Part shown: piece after piece, positions 7,286 to 36,599 of the stretch | Layout: every line of letters starts with the position of its first letter | Numbering within the stretch: the first letter of the stretch is position 1 | Source: Actinomortierella ambigua | Lineage: Eukaryota; Mortierellomycota; Mortierellomycetes; Mortierellales; Mortierellaceae | Length of the DNA stretch: 64,000 bases | Direction of reading: 5' to 3' | Assembly: GCA_016098155.1 (NCBI GenBank) | Contig: JAAAJB010000044.1 | Coordinates: 38,547-102,546, forward strand | The notes under the pieces: model-generated | What the model saw: the letters and a program-made list of their open reading frames with translations, nothing else | Database searches by the model: none | Told to the model about the DNA's origin: nothing | Made by a program: the position numbers and the translations under genes

Positions 7286-9096
7286 ATGCGAGTCTCTCTG
7301 GCCGTTCTTGCTTCTGCCCTAACCCTGCAAGTTGCGCAGGGCTATGGTATCCTCGGTATGCACCCGTATCCATATTCTACTCTGTTGTCCACTTTACTGC
7401 TTTTTTTTCTACCCTCTTCTCTTCTGACTGACTGACTGACTGACTGACTGGCTGACTAACCGACTCACTCACTGACTGACATCGCCATAATATGACACCA
7501 ATTCAAATGACATGTCCATAACAATATAATAGGCCACACATTCACAGGCCAGATCGCCCAGTTGCTGCTGACGCACGAGACGGCGCGGCAGATCAAGGAC
7601 ATCCTGTCGCCGTACTACGATGGTCTGCTGTCCAAGGCTGCGCCGTGGCCCGACACGATCAAGATGCGGCCGCAGTACCGCTGGGCGACTGTGCTCCATT
7701 ACGTCAACACCCCCGGCGACAATCCGCCGGACGATTGTCGCTTCGAGTACTCGTCAAACCGTCGTGATGTCGTCAATGGCATCTTCAACATGACCGCGAC
7801 TCTCCTCCACTACCAGGCCAACCCGCCCAAGTCGTCTCGCTCACCACCACCACCGCGTTCAATAGAACTAGAGCGGCAGTATGACGATGATGCATGGTTC
7901 CTTGCTGGTAGTGGACTATCTAATAGAGACATCAACAACAACAATGATGATGACGACCAAGACGACGACTCTGACAAAGTCGATCGCTCGATCCGGGAGG
8001 ACGCTCTCCGCTTCTTTGTCCACTTTATGGGCGATCTCCACCAGCCACTGCACACTGCCGGCAAGGCTCGAGGAGGCAATGATGCCCCTGCCCGTTGGCG
8101 CCGTGCCAAGACCAATCTGCACAGGATCTGGGACGGTCAACTCATCATGGTAAAAAAAAAAAAAAAAAAAAGCAAAAATGTGGTTTTCTCTCCCATTCCC
8201 CTCCTTCCTTTTCTCCCTTTTTTTGGCCTCCTGGATGCTGGGCACAGACTCTTTTCTGGAGAAAGAGGGGGGTGGGAGTGAACGTTGTGTCAGTCTAATA
8301 ACTCGCGGGCTCAAACAACTACTTTCGTTCCCCCAATTATGATCTATAGAAGGACATCAAGGACAACTTTGACAACGATCCAAAGGCCTACCTCGACAGC
8401 ATCATGGAGCTCACCACGACCTTTTGGGCCCCCTCCGCCAATTGGTCGACCTGCGATCCCGACGTCATCGCCAACGAACTCGTCGACAACCCATGGGCCA
8501 CCGCCCTCCAGCCATCATCCCCATCCTCCTCTTCCTCTACCAATCACCACAAACATACCGTCCTCCACCACCTCTGTCCAAAAGCCTGGGCCCGCGAGAT
8601 GAACGCCCTCGCCTGCGAATACGCCTGGGAGGGCTACCACCAGGGCCGCAACCCATCCGAGGACCAGGACATGTCCGAGGGTCACTACTTTGACCGCGCC
8701 ACCGATCGCGACCACGGCTACCTCGTCCGCCGCCTCCTCGCCATGAGCGGCGTCCGCATGGCCGCCATCCTCAACGCCATCTTTGATCCCGAACGCCCTT
8801 CGGAGGACGATCTCGTTCATTTGGCGGCCTCGCGCCCCTGGAGATCTTCTTCATCATCGTCGTTGTCGTCCATGGAGAGTCGGTTCAGACACTTGCGTCG
8901 CCCACTGTCTGGCTACTATCAGACCGTCCAGTGGCTCCGCGACTGGATCCAACAGGCTGAGCAGGACGGAGAGGGTGACCACCATGCTGGCTGCTCAGAC
9001 TATGATGACGACTATGCAGTCGACTCGATGGACCATGTGGAGGAAGGACAACAGGCCGGCCGTGCTCCACAGCGTCCGTTTGTTCTCCAATTGTAA
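7286..9096 (+). CDS. Secreted S1/P1-type zinc nuclease
   Basis: Three exons (7286-7355, 7533-8149, 8350-9096) give 477 residues. Residues 1-19 form a signal peptide (M-R-V-S-L-A-V-L). The mature N-terminus then reads Y-G-I-L-G-H, with His at position 6 as in S1/P1 nucleases. Further family zinc-site motifs follow in order: W-P-D (about 62-64), W-A-T-V-L-H-Y (74-80), H-F-M-G-D-L-H-Q-P-L-H, and N-L-H-R-I-W-D. Members use three zinc ions to cleave single-stranded DNA/RNA and act as 3'-nucleotidases, usually secreted for nutrient scavenging. Two oddities: the first mature residue, normally Trp, is Tyr, and an Asn/Asp-rich loop is inserted just before the H-F-M-G-D motif. The C-terminus is Asp/His/Gln-rich. 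Intron 1 contains a GACT tetranucleotide repeat. Family assignment is secure; substrate preference is inferred. Confidence 0.92.
7424..7480. repeat. (GACT)n tetranucleotide repeat in nuclease intron 1
   Basis: Tandem TGAC/GACT units, pure at first and then degenerate, lie inside the first intron of the S1/P1 nuclease gene. Confidence 0.9.
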
Positions 9097-9329: not shown

Positions 9330-12300
9330 TTAATCATCGGCTTCATCGGCTCTGCTCTGCTTGGCCTCGGCTTGCTCCCGCAGCTTCTTTGTGAGTTCTT
9401 GAACTGACTCTTCGCTTTCGTCGTCTGCCAATTCGTCTACTTCTTCCTCTTCTTCTTCTTGTTCGACTTCCATCTCCTCCTCCTCTTCTTCCTCCATGTC
9501 TTCCGGCCTCACCCCTTCGTCGTCTTCTTCCTCCTCGTCCTCAAAGGATCGAGGCGTCTCATCTTCCTCTCCTTCTACCGAGTAGCCCAACAGGCGCGTC
9601 ATTTCTCGCTTCATTTGCGACAATGCTCTAGCGTCGCCCTCTTCGTCCGGCAGCTGATCCACTTCTTCTTCGTCTTCACCTTCCTCCTCCTCCTCTTCTT
9701 CTTCTCCTCTTCCTTCCTCCTCTTCCACAACCTCATCATTGATCTCCGAAGGCGCCACCGACCCCGTCGTACAGCTCTCCGTCTCGCCCGCTGACCCGAC
9801 CGCGGCCGCCATCTCCTCCGCGGCAAGCGTCGCCGCCGCATGTTCCAGAGCCTCCTCCTCAGCCTGACGTCGCGTCCGCTGTTGCTCCTCCATCGCCCGT
9901 CGTTCCCGGGCCTCCTTCTCCTTGGCCAATCCGGCCCGTCGCAAGTCGTCCACCACGCCCTCCAACGTTCGTTTCCGGCCTTGCTGTGCTTGTGCCAACC
10001 ACGTCGTTGGAGATCCTCGTCCTTGTCGTCGTGGTCGTCGTCGTCGCTGCTGCTGCTGCTGTTGTTGTTGCTGCTGCTGGGCCGTGATATCATCGTCATC
10101 GTCATCGTTATCATCATCACCATCCTCGTTATTGTCATCTCCCATATCACCGCTACCACTACCACCGGTGTTGCTACGGCCAGCGGCAGCAGCAGCAGCG
10201 GCGGCGGCAGCAGCAGCCGCGCCGCGCGACTTTGTCTGTGCATAGCGGACATACTTGCGCTCGACCTTACGGATATTCCGGAACAGGAACAGCCGCGTGT
10301 ACCGGATCGCCATCATCTTGCTCTCCTTGTACTTGGCTGCCTGTCGGTCGCGGATCGTCTTGACCGACGGCAGATGGCTATAGCGGACCGATGGCGTCGT
10401 GGTCGTATGGTGATGATGATGATGATGATGGTGATGGTGGTGGTGGTGCGGGGACCCTCCTCCTATTGCCCTTCCATTGAGATCCTCATGACCTGCTGCT
10501 GATGTTGGTCGTGGCCCGCGTCCAATGGTGCTGCTATTGGCCTTGCGTTGCCGCTGCCGCCCTCCTCCTTGTTGTGCCTTTTTGCCTTCGCCATGTCCCT
10601 TGCGGCCAGCATGTCCGGCGCCATGGGACCCATTGGGAACAAGGCTACTGTTGTTGTTCGAGTGATGGTTGCCGTTATTGTAATGGTGATGTAAAAGGTG
10701 GCTTCCATAGTGTCCATTCGCACTGTTGCCGTTATGACTGCCACTCAGTGGGGATCCATTGGGATCAAGGCCCTCGTTCGACAGCTCCTTGAGCCGGGCT
10801 CCTTGGCTGCGTGCACCAATGTAGCCGCGACAGTTGGCGGAGCCGCAGCGACACTGCTGCAAGTGAGCGCCGCTGAACGAGGAAAAGTTGTAGTCGTAGG
10901 TGATCTCGCTCAAGGCCGGAATGTCCTGCGACGCAAAGATGCCAATGCTCATCTCGCCGTTCAGGAACCATTTCTCGATCTGGCTGTTGGGTGAGCAGCT
11001 ATAGATATTGTTATTTTAAGGAAAAATAGAGGTCAGTGAGGAAAAACAACAACAACAGCAGCAGTCTTAAAATGATACGGCAATCCGCTTCATACCTGTG
11101 GTTGACAAAACGAGCATTGGTGCCCTTGAGACAGGCATCGACGACTTCTCCCTTCTCATACTCCAAAAAGTAAAAATTTTTGTTGTTCTTGTACATGCCC
11201 TCCATCCGCTCCAGACACAGCTTTTGCGAAATCACCTCGCCTCGGTACTCAATCACAAGACTGCCTCGCTTAATCGGTTTCGTTGTGCGGATGCCAAACC
11301 CACGTTCCTCCGTCTATGTGGTTAACAAACAACAGTTGAATATCAGTTTCTTGATTACTCCTTCATTCTGCATACCATAAAATACAATACAAAAACAAAG
11401 CTGGAGGACTTACCCAAATGACCTCGAGATGATCCTCGTTAGGGTTCTTCTTCTGGAAGCGCTGGTTCGAGCACTGGTCGCCACAGGGGCAGTGGGCCGA
11501 CACACACTCGTAAAACATGACGCGGTTATAACAGTCTTCGCCACATCCAACCACACCGGCCTCTGGTGGCGGGCGTTTGCAATGACACACCATCGGGCTA
11601 GTCTCCACGCGCCTCTTGCGTTCCACAAACACGTCTATACATCAACAAAAAAAGAATGGGTGATGCGTGAAAGACAAGAAGAATGTGTGTTTCATTAGCA
11701 ATCACGAAGCCCACACTTGAAAAAAAAACACTTGGATACCAAACAAATAAAAAAAAAACTTACTGCTCCGAATCTTGACAAACGGATCCGGTTGTTTGCG
11801 CTGCGCCAAGGCTCCCAGCTTCCACGCCTGCATGATATCGAACGGGAGCACAAAGTCGCGCCGTGCATTCACCAGCGTCTCGCCAAAGTTAATCGGCAGC
11901 TCAAAAAATGGTCGCTTCCGCTCTTGCCCTTCCTGCTGCTTCCGTGCCGCCATCATCAGCCACTTGGACGATGCCGAGCCTCCCGATCCGCCACCTCCAA
12001 GCGATGGTGATGATGATGATGCTGCTGCCGTCGTCGTCGTTGTCGTCGTGATGACCGCCGACACGGCCAAAGAAGAAGGAGACGAAGACGTGGAAGGCGA
12101 CGAAGACGGCGACGACGACGACGGCATGGGTGACGCGATGCCCGTGATCCGACGCAATGGTGCATTCGTCTTCAGATCCGCCGAGTACAATCCAGACTTT
12201 AAATACGTCTTGCGCACAAGTTTGATCGTTGTCGCCGAAGCCTTTGTGCCAACGCCTGCTGCTTTTGCTGCCCCGGACAGTTCTATCCGCTTTCGGCCTT

Positions 12301-15300
12301 CCTCCGTCTCCACGGCCCCAAGCCCGCGCTTCCGTGGTACCAACGATGACGATGATGTTGATGATGACGAAGCGGCCTCCGAGCCTGCATTCTTCGCCGG
12401 TCGTCCTACCCGTTTCACCACCACCACTTTGGGCGGTCGCCCCAGGCGCTTCGCTGCACTGCCGCTGCTACCGTGGCTACTGCTTCTACTGCCATGACCA
12501 CCAGACGAACGCCCAGGTGGGCGACCAGGACGTCGAGGCGTCGACGACGTCGTCGCATCCGACATCACCGACTCGTCGTCTCCACCACCACCAGTAGCAT
12601 CCGACGCTGGTTTTTTCCGGCCATGCAATGGCGGTCGTCCGCGCGGTCGTCCACTACTGATCATAGCTGATGCTGATGCTGCTGCTGCTGCCGTTGTTGT
12701 CAACGCCGTTGATCCAGAGTCTGCTCCCGCCGCCACCAACATCCCGCCACCGCCACCACCACCAACGACGACTTTGCTCCGCTTCCGCTTCATGTCATAC
12801 TCGGACGGATCAAATCGGTGCGGGGGTGCCTTGGTCGCCTGCCGCTTCGTGTTGGGCTCGACAATGTTGGCCCGCGAGATCTGGCTCGGGCTCTCCGATC
12901 GTCGTCGCTTCTTGTGCCCATCCGCTGCAGCAGCAGCAGCATCAGCATTCGCCAATCCACCGTCGTCATGACCATACAAGGACGAGGACGAGGACGAGGA
13001 CGAAGAGGAGGATGATCCACCACCACCACCCATCCGGCTACTCTCACCTTGTTGCTGCTGTAGCTGCAGCTTCTGTGCGGCAGCAGCCCGTCGTGCCGTC
13101 GTCGTCTTCGTCGTTGCTGTTGTCGTTGCTGATGTTGTTGGGGCAGTGCGTTTCGCAAACGGCATCGAGTCCAGTATGCGTTTCATCTTCCTCGTCTGTT
13201 CGGGCGTCATCTTTGTCTTGGCCGCCTGCTGCACCATATTGATCAGGGTCGACTCTTGCAAATCCGCCGGGATCTGTAGTTTCTTGGGCACGGGCGTGCC
13301 TCGCTCCACACATTCAATGATCGCCTTGGTGATCTTCAGCTCCTTGCTCCGGACCGAGGGCCGTTCCACCGTCCCCGTCCGATCACACGGGATCCCGGCC
13401 TTCGTACACCGCGCACACACCTTTTGGTTGTCGCACCGCCGGTGCTGCTGTCGACAGTACAGGCATGACGTCGGTCCCAGGAAATATCCCGGTGGTCGCC
13501 CCGGTCGTCGCTTGATCGGCTTCCCATCGGGTCCGAGCGCCGGCGCCGGCGCTTGCGGCACGTACGCGGGGATGTGGCCGCGGATCGTCGCCAGAATCGC
13601 CTCGGATCGTTTCTGAAACAGGAGCTCTTCTATATATATTGTTTTTTGAAAAGTCATGAAGCAACAAATAAAGTCAGAATATAGAGTGTTCCATCTAATC
13701 GGCCTAAAAAAGCGAATTATACAAAAAAACCTACCGATGGCCTTGATCTGATCGTCCTTCGCTGAGCTAGCAGCAGCAAGGGTCTTCTTCAACTCTGACA
13801 CCGAGATGGTCTGGACCACGCCCTGGGCATTCCTCACAGACATCTCTGGCATCTCCTCGCCATTCTCAGCCGCTTCAATCAACGATGCAATATCCATTGT
13901 TGTTGATTTTGTTGCCATCGTCGTTGCTGTCAACGCTGCAGAAACAGTGCCTGCTTTGGTCACATGGCTACTGCTGCTCGTCGTGGCAGTGTTGGCAGTG
14001 TTGGCAGTGTTGGCAGTGCCAGCAGTGGTGGCAATGGCAGTCTTTGGGGCATCGACCGTACCCTTAGCACTGTTACTACCACCATCCTCACTGCTGCTGC
14101 TGGTGGTGGCGATGATACTAAGCCCATTGGTCACCCCGTCTTCTTCCCCTCCTTCCATGCTCGCCACCTTCTTCTCCTTCCCTTTGCCCTTCTCAATCCT
14201 CTCCACTACATTCGTCGTCGTTGCTGCTGCTGCTGCTGCTGCTGCCGCCGCTGCCGCCGCCGCTACTTCAGCAGTCACGTCATTGGCACTAGCACTGGCA
14301 CTGGCACCATCAGCACCAGCACCGACACTACCGACGGTCGTAGTCGATCCCAGCGACAACTTGACTGCCGTCCCATTCACGACCGCCCACGATCTTGGCT
14401 CGGGTTTCTTGGGCGGTGGGCGTGGCGGCTTGGTCTGCACGGCATGGCCCCGCTCGTCCAGCAGCACTTTGCGTCGTCGACCCGACCGTAGCGCAGCCTT
14501 GATCAGTACCCGCTCACTGCTGCCCTCCACCTGGACGATCTCTTCTATCGACGCTGCCGCTGCTGCCTCTGCTGCCGCTGCTGCCGCTGCCTCTGCTGCT
14601 GCCTCTGCTGCCGCTACTGCCGATGGATCCTCATTTTCTGTTGCAGTTGTTGTGGTGGTTGATGACGCTGCTGTTACTTCGCCGGCTTCTGTTGAGGCTT
14701 CGTGCGACCCGGAGAGGCTATCCGTGGCTTGCGCTGATGTCTCTGTCGTCGAATGGGCTATCATTTTTCCCACAGATAACAAATAGACGGTGGATAGGCA
14801 GGGAGAAAGGAGAAGGTAAAAACAAAAACAAAAAAAAATAGAAAGGTGAGCACGTCGTGAAAGCCTTTTTTCGGAATAGGGGTAGAGGTAGGGGTAAGGG
14901 AAAGGGTAGACCCCAAGGGAGGAAAAAAAAGTTACCTTGAGTATGATCGGTGGTGTTTATCGTCTCTAGCACCATGGAGTGGTGATCATCCACCATTGCA
15001 GACACGTCGTTTGGATCAATCACCACCAAACCCACCACGGTCGGTGTAGCCGCATGCGTGCTCGAGATTGTCGCCTCCTCCTCCTCTTCGGAGCGATCAT
15101 TGCTGCTGCTGGTGATCGCAAGTTGGTGATCAGCGCTCAGCATCTCAACATCAGTGTCGTTGCTGATGGCAAAGTTACTGTCATCCTGCATGTCGTTGCT
15201 AACTGCCATATGACTGGTCTTAGTGGTGGAAGCCATCGCCATGGTTGTTGTTGTCGTCGTCATCGTTCTGATGGCAGCACTGCTTGACGCGGAATTGTTC

Positions 15301-15524
15301 TTCTTCTTCTTCTTCTTGTCCGACTTTTCTGCATTGTCCGCGTCCGCGTTTGCCTCTCCCTCCTGGGCGACCGAGCTTGAGCTGTTGCTGGTGGTAGCAG
15401 CATCCTTCTTGGCGAGGATCTGCATCTTGATTTGCAGCGACTCTTCCTCGTTTGGATGCGATCTGATCATCCGCATTGTTGCCAGCATCTCCTCTTCTTC
15501 CTTGCGCAACGCTGCTTCTGCCAT
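9330..15524 (-). CDS. Ash1-like SET-domain histone methyltransferase with AT-hooks and a Zn(II)2Cys6 cluster
   Basis: Six exons (15524-14936, 14757-13735, 13629-11764, 11634-11414, 11313-11096, 10998-9330) join in phase to 1,861 residues. Order of parts: a Ser/Ala/Thr-rich N-terminus; an AT-hook (R-R-P-G-R-P-P-G, about 578-585); a Cys6 cluster with spacing C-x2-C-x6-C-x5-C-x2-C-x6-C at residues 593-619; four more R-G-R-P/G-R-P hooks; an AWS domain (starting C-H-C at 1176, ending N-Q-R-F-Q); a SET domain (G-F-G-I-R, N-H-S-C at 1304-1307, Y-D-Y-N-F at 1340-1344); and a post-[11 protein letters not shown] (1355-1362). A poly-His/Gln/Asp/Glu tail follows. AWS-SET-postSET of this type is the H3K36 methyltransferase class (Ash1/NSD/Set2), and the T-Y-D-Y-N-F-x-S-F form is most like Ash1. 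It should act in the nucleus on chromatin. The start used is the first ATG of the open frame. That frame stays open upstream without an ATG, so an earlier 5' exon is possible. Confidence 0.88.
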
Positions 15525-18218
15525 TGCTTCTTGCGTTACAGGCACTGCAGCGGCTCGCTTTGCAGCGGCTCCTTTGGCACTTTGTAAATGTTGTTTTGTG
15601 TATATTGAGTATTGGATGATAAGGCAATGGAAATTAACAAATTAGCTTTCTTTTTTTTTTTTGTTTCTCCGTTCATAAAGGGTCATTCCCCACACTATCC
15701 ATCCCGCAACAGGGTTGCAGTGTAAAAGGAGCTATGTGGTAATGATAGGAATGTAAAAGAAAAAAAGGGCCCTGTAAAAGCCTTCTTCGGTCTTTTTCTG
15801 TCCCACTCTGCTGGGTTCAAGACCTGTTCGGAAAAAAAAGACGCGTTTTTTTCCTCTCTCTTTCTTCCTCCTCCTCTCATTCCCAAACAAAAAGAACCCT
15901 TGAGTGCATATAAAAAAAATTGGCACAGGTCGCACAAAAGTTGAATACCACCACAACGGTGATGGACTGATAACGGGCAGTGTGATTCTATCACCCATGA
16001 AAAAAAAACAGGAGACAAAAGAGTGGGAAGGCCAAGAAAGAAAGAAAACAAGGTCTGGTACTTTGACACAGAAATAAACAAGAGAAAAAAAAAGAACCAC
16101 ATCTCATTGTCCGATTCCATCCAGGACAGTCGCCATGCATAGTTCCGCCACGCCAGGTCAAGACCTATTCGGGGCTCGACAATGAATGAAGAGTTGCGGA
16201 TCTAATTCCTCGCGGCTGGAATGGGTGCGGACAAAACTGTGAAGGGGTGGGTGGCAAGAATAAAAAAAAAACAAAGGGACGAGGTCGTTTTTTTTTTTTT
16301 TTTTTGTTGAGCATGTGCCTTGTTTTTACGAGCTTACCTTCTCTTTGGCGGCATGTTCTTTTTGGAATGTCACCCACGCGCCTTATAGACGGGTTAAAGG
16401 TGCAAACGAACAATGATGTCGAGTGGGGTTGCAGGTAGGGGGTTTTGGAGTAGAGGTGCGAAGGGGTGGGAATCAGGGCTGCTTGGGATGTCACAATGGC
16501 GAGACGATGATCTTTCAAAGTATTTAGATGTGTTGTTCAATGAAAAAGAAAAAAAAACACACACACCAGTGAGATGGCGACTTTTTTTTGAATTCCCACT
16601 CCAGAGAAATCTAAAAAAGAGAGGTTTTTGGCAGGAAAGACTTCGAGTCGGGGCGGAGCAAGAAAATAGAAAGACTAAAAAAGTCGCGCGCCAGGCCTGG
16701 TCGTGTGGGAGGTTTTTTTCTCCGTTTGAACGGGGACGGACTGACGGCCTCTGAGCAGCAGGAGAAATAAAATATATACAACAAGGGAATGGGAACAATC
16801 AAAAGAGTAGAATAGGGTAGAATAGGGTAGATGGAGAGAAGAGCCAACAACGCGTCAGTCGCCAATGCCAAGATGAAAGAATGTGTGTCAAGTGTGATTG
16901 AGGTACAAGAGACAATGAAAAAAAAAAGGGAGGAGAGAAGAATACAAAAAAGTGGGTTGCGATATTTTTCTTGTGTTGTTGTGGGCCTAGCGACGACTAT
17001 TACGACAACAATAATAGCAGCAACAACAGCAGCAACAACAACAACAACAACAGGGGTGAATACACAGGAAGGATGGGATTGTTAAGAAAAGGAGGAGGGG
17101 GGTGTGAGGAAGGGGATGAGTGAGCGAGAGAGAGAAAGAGAGATAGAGAGAGACAAGAGGGGTGGGATTGGGGTCTTTGCGAGTGAGCATGCGACCAATG
17201 GCTTGCTTGCTCTTCTTTCTTTTCCTCTGCTGTAAACAAAGAAAAGGACCCAGAAAAACCTCCTCCCCAACTCTCGCCCTCCCCACCTCCGCCAACCTCG
17301 CTCGGCGACAACGCCAGCCACGGCCATAGAGTTGTTGGCCCCACCACCAGCTTTCCCTTGCCCTTGCCCTTGCGGAGGAAATGATGGCATGGAGTGCGTG
17401 CACCACGAGATATCGAGGTAGCTCTGCGACCTGCTGTCGTGGGTCCTGGACCCCTCCCCAAAGATACATAGACAAGCATACGGGACTCCAAGATGGATAG
17501 ACTGCTATACTACTACCAAGCCAGACATACTCCAAGTGGGGTTGGACCAACACAGACAAGGCGGGCGGGGGAAGAGAAGGGGGTGGGGGGGATAAAGAGC
17601 ATCCAACGAAGGTGAGTGTGGTCCATACGACATGACGTGGACGGGAAGGAATAGGCTGCAAAAAAGGCGTCTTGCAGGACAAGACAGTGGAACCCTTGTT
17701 CATAGCGACTGTGAAGGGCTCCGCCACGGACTTTTTCTTTTCATGTTTCATGCAACAGACAGCATCCCCCCACCCCACCCACCCACCCACCAGCACCTGA
17801 AGAACATTCCCGTCCCGCGCCATACATAAAATGGCGCTTCTCTCGGACAAGGTGAATTTGTGACAGAGTTTGTTCCGCATCCCTGAATCCCAATGCACAT
17901 AGATGTACTCTTCCCCACTCACTCTTCCAAAGCGGTGGTGAAAAAAAAAAATTATAAGGAAAAAAAATTTTAATGGTACAGCTGCAACCAAAAAAGTGGG
18001 GTAAATGAAAGGTATGAACAAGTTCCACCCGTGTATGACAGGAATGGAAGAAGAAGAAGAAACATATACAAGTGTGTCTGCGCAAGAAGACAAGTTTGTG
18101 TGTGTGTGTGTGTGTGTGTGTGAAGAGATAGAGAGAGAGAGAGAGAGAAAGAGCAAAAAAAAAAATAACAAGGTATAACTGCCAAAGCATCAAGCGCTGA
18201 CATTTCTCTTTCTTCTGT
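15525..18218. other. 2.7 kb spacer between SET gene start and kinase gene end
   Basis: Probably holds the SET-gene promoter and the kinase 3' UTR. The long minus-strand frame between 16987 and 18171 is translated CT/GT/homopolymer sequence and is not supported as a gene. A GT run and a GA run sit near 18096-18150. Confidence 0.55.
18096..18150. repeat. (GT)n followed by (GA)n microsatellite
   Basis: About 27 bases of GT repeat, then a GA-rich run, just downstream (in gene orientation) of the kinase stop codon. It is probably transcribed in the 3' UTR. Confidence 0.9.
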
Positions 18219-21200
18219 TCAGAATCGCATCGATCCCATACCAAAAAAGGCCGATGCACTCATTCCGCCTCCGACGCCTCCACCACTCGAGAAACGCGCA
18301 ACATCGCTATTGCTGTCCTCGAGCGTCGTGCCTTGGCACCATGCGCTGTCCATCACCTGGTCAATCCGCCACCGCTGTTCCGGTTTAGCATGGAACATCT
18401 TACGCAGCAGATCCCGTGCCTCGCGACTACTCTCCGTCGGGTCGTCATAATGCCCGTTCAGGATCTGATACTGCAGTCGTGGCTCGTACTCGTCCTGGAA
18501 CGGCAACCGGCCCGTCAACAGCGCATACAGCACCACCCCCAACGACCACACGTCCGACGACGCCGTCTTTAGTGGGACACAGCTCCGAAGTTGCTCTGGC
18601 GAACAGTATGCCAACGATCCTCCTACCATCTGTTCTTCGTCCTCCACTGCCTCATCGCATTCATCCTCCTGACCCTCCCCGGCGGCATCCTCCATCACCA
18701 CATCCAACCCCGTCAGGCTCTGGCTCCGCTCTTGTCTCGAGCCAAGCAGGCCATGCTGGGTGGTCGCCGACGATGATGACATCGACAGGGATGACGACGA
18801 CGAAGACGACAACATCAACTCGGACGCCTGTGACTGCGACGACGACGACTCGGACGACCTGCACGAGCCATGGCTGCTGCTGCTGTTGCTCGGCGACGAC
18901 GATGACGCGTTGCCAAACGTCGGCGACAGCGGCGAGTCGAAAAAGTAATTGGCCGCCTCCTCGTTCTGACACTCGGCCAGTCCGAAATCGCACACCTTCC
19001 ACGTCCCATCCTCGTGCTGCAGCACATTCTCCAGCTTGATATCCCGGTGCACAATCTGCTTCTCCACATGCATATACCGCACCGCCGCCGCAATCTGGTT
19101 AAAGATCTTTCGGGCTTCCTCCTCTGGCAAGCCCGTCGTCGTGCTGGTGGTGGGTGCTGACAACGAACCCCACGCCGAACTTGCCGCCGTTGCCGCAGTC
19201 TTCTTGCCCGCCGTCCTTTTCGCCAAATAGTCCAAGAGACTACCTCCCGTGCACAGCTCGCAAAACACAAACGTCGCACACGGTAGCTTCTCCACCGCCA
19301 CAAACGGCACCACATTCGGATGCGACAGCCGGCTCCAGATTGCAACCTCTTTCCTCAGCATGCGATGAATCCGCCCGTTGATCGCCTTGCCACCGTCCGT
19401 TCGCGCCTTGACCACTTTGACCGCCACCCGCGCCACCAGGCCATCCACCTGCGTCGCAAACGCCTCCCGTACCACCGAGAATCCGCCGTGGCCAATCACT
19501 TTGCCCATGATAAAGTCTCCCACGGCCTCTCCCTCATCATCGGCATTCACCAGCGCCGGCGTCGTCACATCCACCAGATTCGACAAAAATGCCACTGCGG
19601 GCGAATACGGCAGCGAACTGTACGAAGACGATGTGACCATCGGTGTCGTTGGTGACACCGTCGGTACCGGGTTCGACTGTGGGCCAAAAGATGATGAAGA
19701 CGACAGCGTCGATCCCGTCGGACACGCGGGGAAGTAGCTGCCGCTGCCGCCTCCACTTGCCATTGCAGTCATCGTCATGTTTCCTCCTGTGCCTCCTCCT
19801 CCCCCACCATTCAGGAGCGGTCGCAAGCCACCAGACGACAGCGTCCGCGACCGATGTAGTCGATTGATCGGGAATGACGGCGTCTGCTCCGGTGCCCGCC
19901 ACGACAGTGACAACTGGTCCAGCGAGTTTACCAGTGCTGGATTCGCCGTTCGCGGCGACGTGGGCGACAGTGACGGCAACAGCACATTCTGCTGGTACTG
20001 CAGCGACGACGACGACGACGACGACGACGATATTGGGGGTGCCGGTGGAAGCGACGAGTTTTTCAACGTCGACCACGGTGATGACGACGAAAAGGCCGAC
20101 GCCATGGGCCTGGTCACGTTCAGGTGATCATACTGTTGCTGCTGCTGTTGCTGTTGTTGTCTTTCTTTCTCCTGGCCCTGGCCCTGACCCTGGCATTCCC
20201 TCTCCCCTTTCTCCTTTTGCTGGAGCAACGACATGCTGAGGTGGCCCTCGGGGCGCGACTGTGGACCCGAAAAATCATTCAATTTGCTGCCACAGTTCAA
20301 CCCAGTGGTGGCAGTAGAGGCAGTAGTAGTAGCAGTAGTAGTCGTGGTAGTAGGTACATCGGCAGCACTAGCGGTAGAGGGTGTCTCTCTTGCCTTGAAT
20401 GCTTCGCTGATACTGCCGTTGCTACCAGCAGTACTGGTGGTATTGGTATTGGTGTGGGTATGGGTATGGGTATGAGTGGAGGGGATACTGTGGGTGCTAG
20501 CGTTGGTGGTGCCAGTGTTGTTGCCAGAGAAGGGACGTCGGAGACACTCTGAGGAGGTGTCGATCGTGATGCTAGGGTGAAGGTGTTGTGAGAGATGCGC
20601 TGTGCCTCTGTTGACCCGCAACGAAGGCGTGGGAGTGAGGGAGGGTGAAGGTGCAGATGCGGTGGCGGTGGTGGTCATGTTCATCGCTGTGCCAACGACT
20701 CCCTCCGATGATGCGCCTCGTGCCACCGCGTGAGTCGTCTGCGCGCCCCCCAAACAAGATAGCGAATCATCGTTACCAACAGAGTCGTTTGTACCACTGG
20801 CGCTAAGGGTGGTCACAGGCGATTTTCTCCTATCTTCCGACATTGCGTGGCTCTCTTGTTGTTGTTGTTGTTGCTGCTGCTGCTGTTCTTGTTGATGTTG
20901 ATGATGTTGTTGCTGTTGTTGCACATGTTGGTGCTGCTGCAGACCTTGTTTGAGAGACTGCTGGTGCTGCTGCTGTTGTTGTTGGCCTGATTCCCGAGTA
21001 ACCCGTCTTGTAGCATTGCTAGTTGGTGTGGTCGTACTGGGAGGTGGGGAAGGAGGAAGAAGGTGAAGGGGCTCAGGAGTTGTTACTGTGATGGCTGCTG
21101 CTGCTGCTGCTGCTGCTGCTACTACCGTAGTTGCATGTGCTCCTCCTCGCTGTCCATTCTCATTTCGCTGCAGAGCGCCCCTTTCTTGCGCAGGCCGACC

Positions 21201-22049
21201 TTTCTCCACCAGTTGTTTCTCCACGATTGGCTCTGCATCTTCTTCTTTGACGTCGTTTTTGGTGCTGTTTGCATGAGTCTCACCCACCCTGCTCTTCTTT
21301 TTCTTCATCCTATCCTCCTGCTCCTCCACCACCTCCTCCTCCTCCTCTTCCACCACCACCACCTCCTCGTCCTCATTTTCTTCCTCCACCTCCTGTTGCC
21401 CCTTCCGTATAGCATGTATGCCTTGAAAGCTGCGACGGTGCGGGGGCATTGACGTCAGGAAAGAGCGGGGCTTGGGCGACGAGGAGCCCAGCATAAACGC
21501 GCTCTCGTCCGACATGTAGGCCGGAGCATGCTGCGAAGGGTGCAGAGGATGGCCCGGGTACGTCTGGAGGGAGTGCCGTTGCTGCTGGCGCTGCTGGCGC
21601 TGGTACTGCCGGTGGTTCTCCTCCAATCGCACTTTCTGCTGCTGGCGCCCAAAGCTATCGATCCCATCACCGCCTCCATCACTACCACGATGATCATATT
21701 GAGCCTCTTCGTCATCGGAGGCAAAGAGGGCTTCCTCTACAGGGCTATCTTCGAGATAATCATCAAACAGATTGAGCGGTCGTCGACCACCTGAACCGAG
21801 AAGCGTAGAAGCTCTATCGCTGTCGAGACAGCCGCCGTGGGAGTGGGAGCGCTTGACCAGCGGGGGTCTCTGATGTTGATGTTGATGGTGGTGGGGGTGG
21901 TGGTGAGGGTGATGGTGTAGCGGCTGTTGCCTCTGGAGGTGAAAGGATGGCCCCGAGTGCAAGTCGCGGCTACTAGTGTTACTGCCGGTGGTGGTGTTGT
22001 TGTTGGAACGAGAAGTTGGAATAGGTTGAGGTGACGAGTGAGTATTCAT
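18219..22049 (-). CDS. Large Ser/Thr protein kinase (CAMK-like) with activation-loop insertion
   Basis: One uninterrupted exon encodes 1,276 residues, starting M-N-T-H-S-S. Residues 1 to about 840 are low complexity: Gln/His runs, Thr/Ala/Ser runs and an acidic block. The kinase domain occupies roughly 845-1235. It shows a Gly-loop I-G-H-G-G-F-S-V-V, A-V-K-V-V, H-R-D-I-K-L-E-N (about 1000), D-F-G-L-A (about 1021), S-P-E in place of A-P-E (about 1151), and D-V-W-S-L-G-V-V-L-Y. All catalytic residues appear intact. Between DFG and SPE there are about 130 residues, mostly Ser-rich and acidic, where family members have 20-30. A second, shorter Ala/Thr/Ser insertion lies before the helix containing E-E-A-R-K-I-F. 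The layout resembles CAMK-group fungal kinases, but I cannot name the subfamily. Ends F-G-M-G-S-M-R-F. Confidence 0.88.
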   Translation of the reverse strand: MNTHSSPQPIPTSRSNNNTTTGSNTSSRDLHSGPSFHLQRQQPLHHHPHHHPHHHQHQHQRPPLVKRSHSHGGCLDSDRASTLLGSGGRRPLNLFDDYLEDSPVEEALFASDDEEAQYDHRGSDGGGDGIDSFGRQQQKVRLEENHRQYQRQQRQQQRHSLQTYPGHPLHPSQHAPAYMSDESAFMLGSSSPKPRSFLTSMPPHRRSFQGIHAIRKGQQEVEEENEDEEVVVVEEEEEEVVEEQEDRMKKKKSRVGETHANSTKNDVKEEDAEPIVEKQLVEKGRPAQERGALQRNENGQRGGAHATTVVAAAAAAAAAITVTTPEPLHLLPPSPPPSTTTPTSNATRRVTRESGQQQQQQHQQSLKQGLQQHQHVQQQQQHHQHQQEQQQQQQQQQQESHAMSEDRRKSPVTTLSASGTNDSVGNDDSLSCLGGAQTTHAVARGASSEGVVGTAMNMTTTATASAPSPSLTPTPSLRVNRGTAHLSQHLHPSITIDTSSECLRRPFSGNNTGTTNASTHSIPSTHTHTHTHTNTNTTSTAGSNGSISEAFKARETPSTASAADVPTTTTTTATTTASTATTGLNCGSKLNDFSGPQSRPEGHLSMSLLQQKEKGERECQGQGQGQEKERQQQQQQQQQYDHLNVTRPMASAFSSSSPWSTLKNSSLPPAPPISSSSSSSSSLQYQQNVLLPSLSPTSPRTANPALVNSLDQLSLSWRAPEQTPSFPINRLHRSRTLSSGGLRPLLNGGGGGGTGGNMTMTAMASGGGSGSYFPACPTGSTLSSSSSFGPQSNPVPTVSPTTPMVTSSSYSSLPYSPAVAFLSNLVDVTTPALVNADDEGEAVGDFIMGKVIGHGGFSVVREAFATQVDGLVARVAVKVVKARTDGGKAINGRIHRMLRKEVAIWSRLSHPNVVPFVAVEKLPCATFVFCELCTGGSLLDYLAKRTAGKKTAATAASSAWGSLSAPTTSTTTGLPEEEARKIFNQIAAAVRYMHVEKQIVHRDIKLENVLQHEDGTWKVCDFGLAECQNEEAANYFFDSPLSPTFGNASSSSPSNSSSSHGSCRSSESSSSQSQASELMLSSSSSSSLSMSSSSATTQHGLLGSRQERSQSLTGLDVVMEDAAGEGQEDECDEAVEDEEQMVGGSLAYCSPEQLRSCVPLKTASSDVWSLGVVLYALLTGRLPFQDEYEPRLQYQILNGHYDDPTESSREARDLLRKMFHAKPEQRWRIDQVMDSAWCQGTTLEDSNSDVARFSSGGGVGGGMSASAFFGMGSMRF
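20857..20990 (-). repeat. CAG/CAA tract encoding poly-Gln in the kinase
   Basis: Mixed CAG/CAA (read on the - strand) with interspersed His codons encodes a Gln/His-rich stretch in the N-terminal half of the kinase. Confidence 0.9.

Positions 22050-32104: not shown

Positions 32105-36599
<4,495 letters not shown>

What the first reader, a model, noticed from the sequence alone, without database searches (positions are those of the whole stretch)
13385..13465. Zn(II)2Cys6 DNA-binding cluster inside an Ash1-like SET methyltransferase
Residues 593-619 of the spliced protein have exact fungal zinc-cluster spacing (C-x2-C-x6-C-x5-C-x2-C-x6-C), including the usual Arg after the second Cys and C-D after the third. 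It lies between an AT-hook and the AWS-SET-postSET module in one continuous exon, so it is not a gene-merge artefact at an intron. Zinc clusters normally belong to sequence-specific transcription factors. A fusion to an H3K36 methyltransferase would allow direct promoter targeting of a chromatin mark. I know of no described protein with this architecture.
Basis: partly seen in the sequence, partly recalled or inferred. Interest (0 to 1): 0.78.

Follow-up and report, generated by a model that had tools for sequence, protein, structure and literature searches.

The report
Histone methyltransferase with built-in DNA reader
In Mortierella-type soil fungi the Ash1 enzyme, which marks histones, carries a transcription-factor-type DNA-binding domain, and sister fungal groups carry a different one, so the enzyme may choose its own target genes.

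Summary
Exact spacing is kept in 40 of 42 Mortierellomycota Ash1 proteins listed; the other two are models without the N-terminus. It is absent from 181 of 181 other listed proteins. The AT-hook/zinc-cluster block is about as conserved as AWS-SET while most of the N-terminus is not. Unexpectedly, sister lineages' Ash1 carry GATA-type fingers N-terminal to SET: 21 of 22 named Mucoromycotina by cysteine spacing, 10 of 10 Glomeromycotina by precomputed Pfam. Best explanation: Ash1 of Mucoromycota in the broad sense is a self-targeting H3K36 methyltransferase whose DNA reader was exchanged between lineages. DNA binding, targeting and substrate are inferred, not shown. Both AlphaFold models were poor (pLDDT 58); Foldseek found no match.

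The parts
9330..16354 (-). Ash1 gene, seven-exon model: 16338-16354 (tentative), 14936-15579, 13735-14757, 11764-13629, 11414-11634, 11096-11313, 9330-10998; 1885 aa
   Evidence: open frame, GT-AG introns; N-terminus resembles P0001 '[18 protein letters not shown]'
13385..13465 (-). Zn(II)2Cys6 cluster [27 protein letters not shown]
13487..13513 (-). AT-hook KRRPGRPPG, seven residues before the cluster
   Evidence: R-x-P-G-R-P and GY.LGP invariant in 32 of 32 aligned rows, rows chosen as cluster carriers; a GRP at this spacing before C..C in 40 of 42. The name AT-hook is recalled, not from a model hit
13355..13384 (-). conserved tail after the cluster, [10 protein letters not shown]
12392..12652 (-). 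four further AT-hook-like motifs ([32 protein letters not shown])
   Evidence: sequence; motif type recalled, no Pfam hit
12182..12205 (-). Ash1 pre-AWS motif YLKSGLYS, same exon as the zinc cluster
   Evidence: similar motif in Endogone, Spinellus, Phycomyces and Spizellomyces Ash1
11894..11905 (-). FxLP motif 1 (FELP), candidate MRG15-binding site
   Evidence: motif role from PMC5963871 (passages)
11843..11854 (-). FxLP motif 2 (FVLP)
11414..11634 (-). exon with the AWS domain
   Evidence: Pfam PF17907 54.9 bits;
11096..11313 (-). exon with the first part of SET, up to ARFVNH
   Evidence: Pfam PF00856
10815..10998 (-). second part of SET, and post[16 protein letters not shown] at 10815-10853
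   Evidence: Pfam PF00856; postSET read by eye
10230..10391 (-). conserved block after SET without a Pfam family

Best explanation
This is an Ash1-type H3K36 methyltransferase of an Actinomortierella-like fungus that carries a transcription-factor-type DNA reader. The AT-hook is proposed to lie in an A/T-rich minor groove while the adjoining Zn2Cys6 cluster reads a short GC-containing element (CGG-like, by recalled analogy with Gal4, Leu3 and Put3) in the major groove. This composite reader, helped by further AT-hooks, brings the AWS-SET-postSET module to chosen genes, where an MRG15/Eaf3-type partner bound to the FxLP motifs activates it and it methylates H3K36 independently of elongating RNA polymerase. 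Shown: architecture, conservation, lineage distribution among the proteins listed, presence of an MRG-domain gene. Inferred: DNA binding, sequence preference, targeting, activation by MRG15, substrate, and the direction of the exchange.
For: Zn_clus, AWS and SET in one spliced protein. Exact six-Cys spacing in 38 of 38 first-search hits and 40 of 42 Mortierellomycota Ash1, against 0 of 181 others. Block conservation 0.90 against 0.05-0.40 over residues 1-360 and 0.85-0.98 in AWS-SET, on 21 sequences. Between Cys2 and Cys3, where zinc-cluster factors contact DNA (recalled), R, H and R are invariant in 32 of 32 rows. The nine best of 16 PDB sequence matches are Zn2Cys6 DNA-binding domains. GATA-type fingers N-terminal to SET in sister lineages: 21 of 22 named Mucoromycotina by spacing, Pfam GATA at E<=1 in 26 of 28 Mucoromycotina/Glomeromycotina scanned. 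FxLP before AWS in 37 of 42 Mortierellomycota rows; MRG-domain gene in this genome; MRG15 binds FxLP and stimulates fly and human Ash1 (PMC5963871, passages). Tree: 13 of 13 Mortierellomycota rows in one clade, 100/99, next to GATA-bearing Ash1.
Against: No DNA-binding data. PDB sequence matches are weak (best E 0.0089), and six of the 16 are unrelated proteins (PfEMP1, TGF-beta receptor II). Both AlphaFold models are poor (mean pLDDT 58.0); Foldseek on the second found no match. Precomputed Pfam lists Zn_clus in only 2 of 38 homologues; 26 of 26 scanned match only at the relaxed E<=1. No fungal TF middle domain and no proven dimerisation element. Two Mortierellomycota models (P0150, P0164) lack the cluster; both lack the N-terminus. 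Neurospora ASH1 is active (PMC6251624) and the ascomycete Ash1 scanned here (P0059) has only AWS and SET, so such a reader is not needed for Ash1 function in general. P0145 (Syncephalastrum) has no GATA finger.
Confidence: 0.7

Rival explanations
1. The zinc cluster is a folded scaffold that binds a protein partner or the nucleosome surface rather than a DNA sequence; targeting comes from elsewhere.
For: No TF middle domain found; poor structural models leave the surface undetermined.
Against: Adjoining AT-hook, invariant basic residues between Cys2 and Cys3, and GATA-type fingers, another DNA reader, in sister lineages.
Confidence: 0.2
2. The domain binds DNA with little specificity and only raises general chromatin affinity together with the AT-hooks.
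For: Several AT-hook-like motifs in the same protein; a single zinc cluster would contact only a few bases.
Against: The spacing and basic loop are held about as strictly as the catalytic domain; simple charge would not need this.
Confidence: 0.25
3. Two neighbouring genes (a zinc-cluster factor and an Ash1 gene) were merged by prediction.
For: AWS-SET exons are separate from the zinc exon; some database models look merged with neighbours (MAGE in P0003, P0015, P0016; kinase in P0027). No RNA data were available.
Against: The zinc exon itself encodes the Ash1 pre-AWS motifs YLKSGLYS and FxLP. 35 of 38 first-search hits, from ten named genera, carry SET in the same model. P0006 is one continuous 1458-aa ORF, possibly from a transcript.
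Confidence: 0.03
4. Zinc-cluster and GATA forms are independent gains, not an exchange.
For: Glomeromycotina fingers have a C-x4-C first pair, 10 of 10; the deep nodes have moderate support.
Against: In the tree GATA-bearing Ash1 lie around the Mortierellomycota clade, with Endogone as its sister, 89/90.
Confidence: 0.4

Closest known systems
ASH1/ASH1L (KMT2H), animals and filamentous fungi
   Same: AWS-SET-postSET, pre-AWS block with FxLP; AT-hooks as in Drosophila ASH1 (PMC9692433)
   Different: no bromodomain, PHD or BAH found by Pfam; has a Zn2Cys6 cluster seen in none of the 181 listed proteins outside Mortierellomycota
Fungal Zn2Cys6 transcription factors (Pho7, Leu3, Put3, Gal4 type)
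   Same: six-cysteine spacing, CR at Cys2, CD at Cys3, basic loop
   Different: no fungal TF middle domain; fused to a methyltransferase
MLL/KMT2A (recalled)
   Same: AT-hooks followed by a zinc DNA-binding module far N-terminal of SET
   Different: MLL uses CXXC (unmethylated CpG), has no AWS, methylates H3K4
GATA-Ash1 of Mucoromycotina and Glomeromycotina (seen here)
   Same: Ash1 with TF-type fingers N-terminal of AWS-SET
   Different: GATA-type fingers instead of AT-hook plus Zn2Cys6

Membership tests
Ash1 H3K36 methyltransferases | AWS followed by SET and postSET | tested here: met
   AWS 54.9 bits, SET 74.5 bits; post[13 protein letters not shown] by eye
Ash1 H3K36 methyltransferases | FxLP motif N-terminal to AWS | tested here: met
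   FELP and FVLP; role from PMC5963871 (passages)
Ash1 H3K36 methyltransferases | groups with named ASH1 proteins by sequence | tested here: met
   best named hits are ash1l; tree, which held no Set2 rows, so Ash1 against Set2 was not tested by tree
Ash1 H3K36 methyltransferases | animal accessory domains bromo, PHD, BAH | tested here: not met
   also not found in the nine fungal Ash1 proteins scanned, so this is a feature of animal ASH1 only
Ash1 H3K36 methyltransferases | H3K36 methylation activity | not testable with these tools
   needs an enzyme assay
Zn2Cys6 domain (Pfam Zn_clus) | C-x2-C-x6-C-x5-12-C-x2-C-x6-8-C (spacing recalled) | tested here: met
Zn2Cys6 domain (Pfam Zn_clus) | score above curated cut-off | tested here: met
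   24.2 against 21 bits in this protein; precomputed annotation lists it in 2 of 38 homologues only
Zn2Cys6 domain (Pfam Zn_clus) | binuclear zinc fold | tested here: inconclusive
   models show short helices at each C-x2-C, but pLDDT 58 and no Foldseek match
Zn2Cys6 transcription factor | fungal TF middle/regulatory domain | tested here: not met
   no such family
Zn2Cys6 transcription factor | sequence-specific DNA binding | not testable with these tools
   needs SELEX or EMSA
MLL/KMT2A | CXXC domain | tested here: not met
   no CXXC family

The most novel reading that the evidence does not exclude
Ash1 of Mucoromycota in the broad sense is a histone methyltransferase that selects its own genomic sites through an exchangeable transcription-factor DNA reader: GATA-type fingers ancestrally, replaced in the stem of Mortierellomycota by an AT-hook plus Zn2Cys6 unit.
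Probability: 0.45. Interest if true: 0.83.

Novelty: new variant of a known kind. Interest (0 to 1): 0.72.

Why it matters
[quoted passage not shown] A fungal survey describes ASH1-like proteins as lacking AT-hooks and the other motifs of Drosophila ASH1 (PMC9692433, passage); the terms GATA and Mortierell- do not occur in its main text. Here Ash1 across the Mortierellomycota sampled carries a candidate DNA reader on the enzyme itself, and sister lineages carry another. That allows a direct test: determine the motif, mutate the cluster and see whether the H3K36 mark moves. It would also be a natural case of domain exchange re-aiming a chromatin enzyme.

Tried and rejected
Gene-merge artefact: thought unlikely because the zinc exon carries Ash1's own pre-AWS motifs; RNA was not available. 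Chance motif: rejected. Paralogue or pseudogene: two AWS matches over the cut-off in the genome, this gene and one at C208 (exon-wise search); the frame is open. Other fused zinc cluster and SET genes in this genome: not searched for as such; comparing the two match lists, contig C190 has both, about 5 kb apart on opposite strands. Structural confirmation: two AlphaFold jobs gave pLDDT 58, and Foldseek and VIA on the second model gave nothing, so the fold rests on sequence. PRC2 context: VEFS-Box and preSET_CXC searches of the genome found nothing, but no control genome rang either, so absence is not shown. P0006 as a transcript: P0013 and P0037, from the same kind of source, end soon after VVSREST where the homologue P0041 continues, as if reading into an intron; that suggests an unspliced ORF caller and makes the continuous 1458-aa P0006 possibly cDNA. 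The contig could not be read, and intron loss is not excluded, so this is weak. Literature for a described fusion: searches listed no paper on it by title or start of abstract; two searches listed only 20 of 137 and 10 of 15. Of PMC9692433, PMC6251624, PMC5963871 and PMC5415576 I read passages only (32; 43; 63). A search for a Pho7 structure paper found one unrelated paper. Limits: the Zn region search favours carriers; two searches listed 120 of 169 and 120 of 199 hits and have length limits; independent zinc-cluster/SET fusions elsewhere would have been missed; Zoopagomycota were not looked at and Basidiomycota hardly.

Full report
Observation. The window lies in a 33.8-Mb unnamed assembly, fungal by its gene content. 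Splice sites read from the sequence give an open seven-exon model of 1885 residues; the 17-base first exon is tentative. Pfam finds Zn_clus (24.2 bits, cut-off 21), AWS (54.9) and SET (74.5), and no other family up to E 1, in the first 1395 of the 1667 residues counted from the ATG at 14764; the remaining 272 residues and the 214-residue upstream exon match nothing up to E 0.1. The statement that the cluster and AWS-SET-postSET lie in one exon is wrong. Exon 11764-13629 holds the AT-hooks, the cluster, YLKSGLYS and both FxLP motifs, and ends after [17 protein letters not shown] and postSET are in the three following exons.

Is it one gene? Probably yes, on indirect evidence. [12 protein letters not shown] motifs occur before AWS in Endogone, Spinellus, Phycomyces and Spizellomyces Ash1, and here the motif is in the same exon as the cluster. 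Of the 38 first-search hits, 35 carry SET in the same model by precomputed Pfam, from ten named genera; P0009, P0013 and P0037 do not. RNA was not available.

Conservation. A search with core residues 340-500 returned 38 proteins at E<=0.001: 34 with source names, all of Mortierellomycota genera (taxonomy recalled), and four unnamed. All 38 have the exact spacing; that search favours carriers. A search with the SET region, which does not, listed the best 120 of 169 hits, and a third, with the SET region of Spinellus P0040, the best 120 of 199. I assigned the 223 listed proteins to groups by source name and, for unnamed ones, by similarity. Mortierellomycota: 42, of which 40 have the cluster; the two without are P0164, which starts at AWS, and P0150, an unnamed 649-aa protein that starts at later AT-hooks. 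The other 181, which include some SETD2 and plant proteins, have none. On this protein plus 20 chosen full models the block scores 0.90 mean majority-residue frequency, against 0.05-0.40 over residues 1-360 and 0.85-0.98 in AWS-SET. In a 32-row alignment of carriers the six Cys, the R after Cys2, H and R in the loop, the D after Cys3 and the AT-hook R-x-P-G-R-P are invariant. Zn_clus matched 26 of 26 members scanned at E<=1, but precomputed annotation lists it in only 2 of 38, which may explain why it has gone unremarked.

What kind of zinc cluster. Of 16 PDB sequence matches up to E 1, the nine best are Zn2Cys6 DNA-binding domains: Pho7 and C27B12.11c (taken to be the same protein), Leu3 twice, Put3 twice, Ppr1, Cyp1 and Hap1; the best E is 0.0089. 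One more Cyp1 variant and six unrelated chains (PfEMP1, TGF-beta receptor II) follow. The nearest relative in the same genome is a zinc cluster in a 606-aa frame at C190, 38% identical over 39 residues. AlphaFold gave low-confidence models with a short helix at each C-x2-C; Foldseek found no match for the second. The fold is therefore supported by sequence only.

Sister lineages. Mucoromycotina Ash1 (Endogone, Mucorales, Umbelopsis) have GATA spacing N-terminal to SET in 24 of 25, or 21 of 22 if three unnamed proteins, which I placed partly by their GATA fingers, are left out. The exception is Syncephalastrum P0145; Cunninghamella P0140 has the spacing but no Pfam GATA match. Ten of ten Glomeromycotina carry Pfam GATA in the precomputed annotation; the usual spacing pattern found 0 of 10 because their first pair is C-x4-C, seen in 10 of 10. 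Four rescanned score 28.1-30.2 bits, cut-off 26.8. A Pfam scan of 28 of these 35 proteins gave GATA in 26 at E<=1. None of the 14 chytrid-type, 3 aphelid and 129 remaining proteins has either pattern before SET. In a 55-row tree of AWS-SET, the 13 Mortierellomycota rows form a clade (100/99); Endogone P0039 is its sister (89/90), and other GATA forms and Glomeromycotina lie around it (89/94), with one long-branched basidiomycete, P0206, among them. Mucoromycotina are not one clade there. The simplest reading is a GATA-bearing ancestor and replacement in Mortierellomycota; independent gains are not excluded.

How it probably works. Fly and human Ash1 are stimulated by MRG15 bound to FxLP near the SET domain (PMC5963871, passages). 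FxLP is present before AWS in 37 of 42 Mortierellomycota rows; three rows lack the SET region and two, P0025 and P0164, gave no match. The genome has an MRG-domain gene. I infer that the AT-hook/Zn2Cys6 unit chooses sites, MRG15 switches the enzyme on, and H3K36 methylation follows. The sequence read, the direction of regulation and the substrate are unknown. In Neurospora, ASH1-dependent H3K36 methylation is linked to repression (PMC6251624, title and passages).

Standing against known kinds. It is an Ash1 by domains and sequence. It contains a Zn2Cys6 domain but is not a Zn2Cys6 transcription factor in the usual sense. It resembles MLL in layout only (recalled). Searches listed no paper describing the fusion, judged by titles and starts of abstracts, and the fungal SET survey describes ASH1-like proteins as lacking AT-hooks and other motifs (PMC9692433, passages). 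The library lacks most subscription papers and preprints, so an earlier description cannot be excluded.

Noticed in passing
P0039, P0040, P0124-P0146 and Glomeromycotina such as P0147, P0151-P0153, P0155, P0156: Ash1 with GATA-type fingers N-terminal to AWS-SET (all but P0145 by spacing among the first group); the Glomeromycotina finger has a C-x4-C first pair.
   Followed up: partly
window 10230-10391 (-): Strongly conserved block after SET ([15 protein letters not shown]...[21 protein letters not shown]) with no Pfam family.
   Followed up: no
window 12860-12910 (-): Conserved basic/Ser motif [17 protein letters not shown], possibly a nuclear localisation signal.
   Followed up: no
P0003, P0015, P0016, P0027: Public Ash1 models that also hold a MAGE domain or a kinase, likely neighbour merges; in the window a kinase gene (18222-22049, -) lies upstream on the same strand, so the kinase case hints at conserved gene order.
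   Followed up: partly
window 7511-9093 (+): S1/P1 nuclease gene convergent with the Ash1 gene.
   Followed up: no
window 33586-36596 (+): 6-phosphofructo-2-kinase and histidine-phosphatase domains, probably one bifunctional gene.
   Followed up: no
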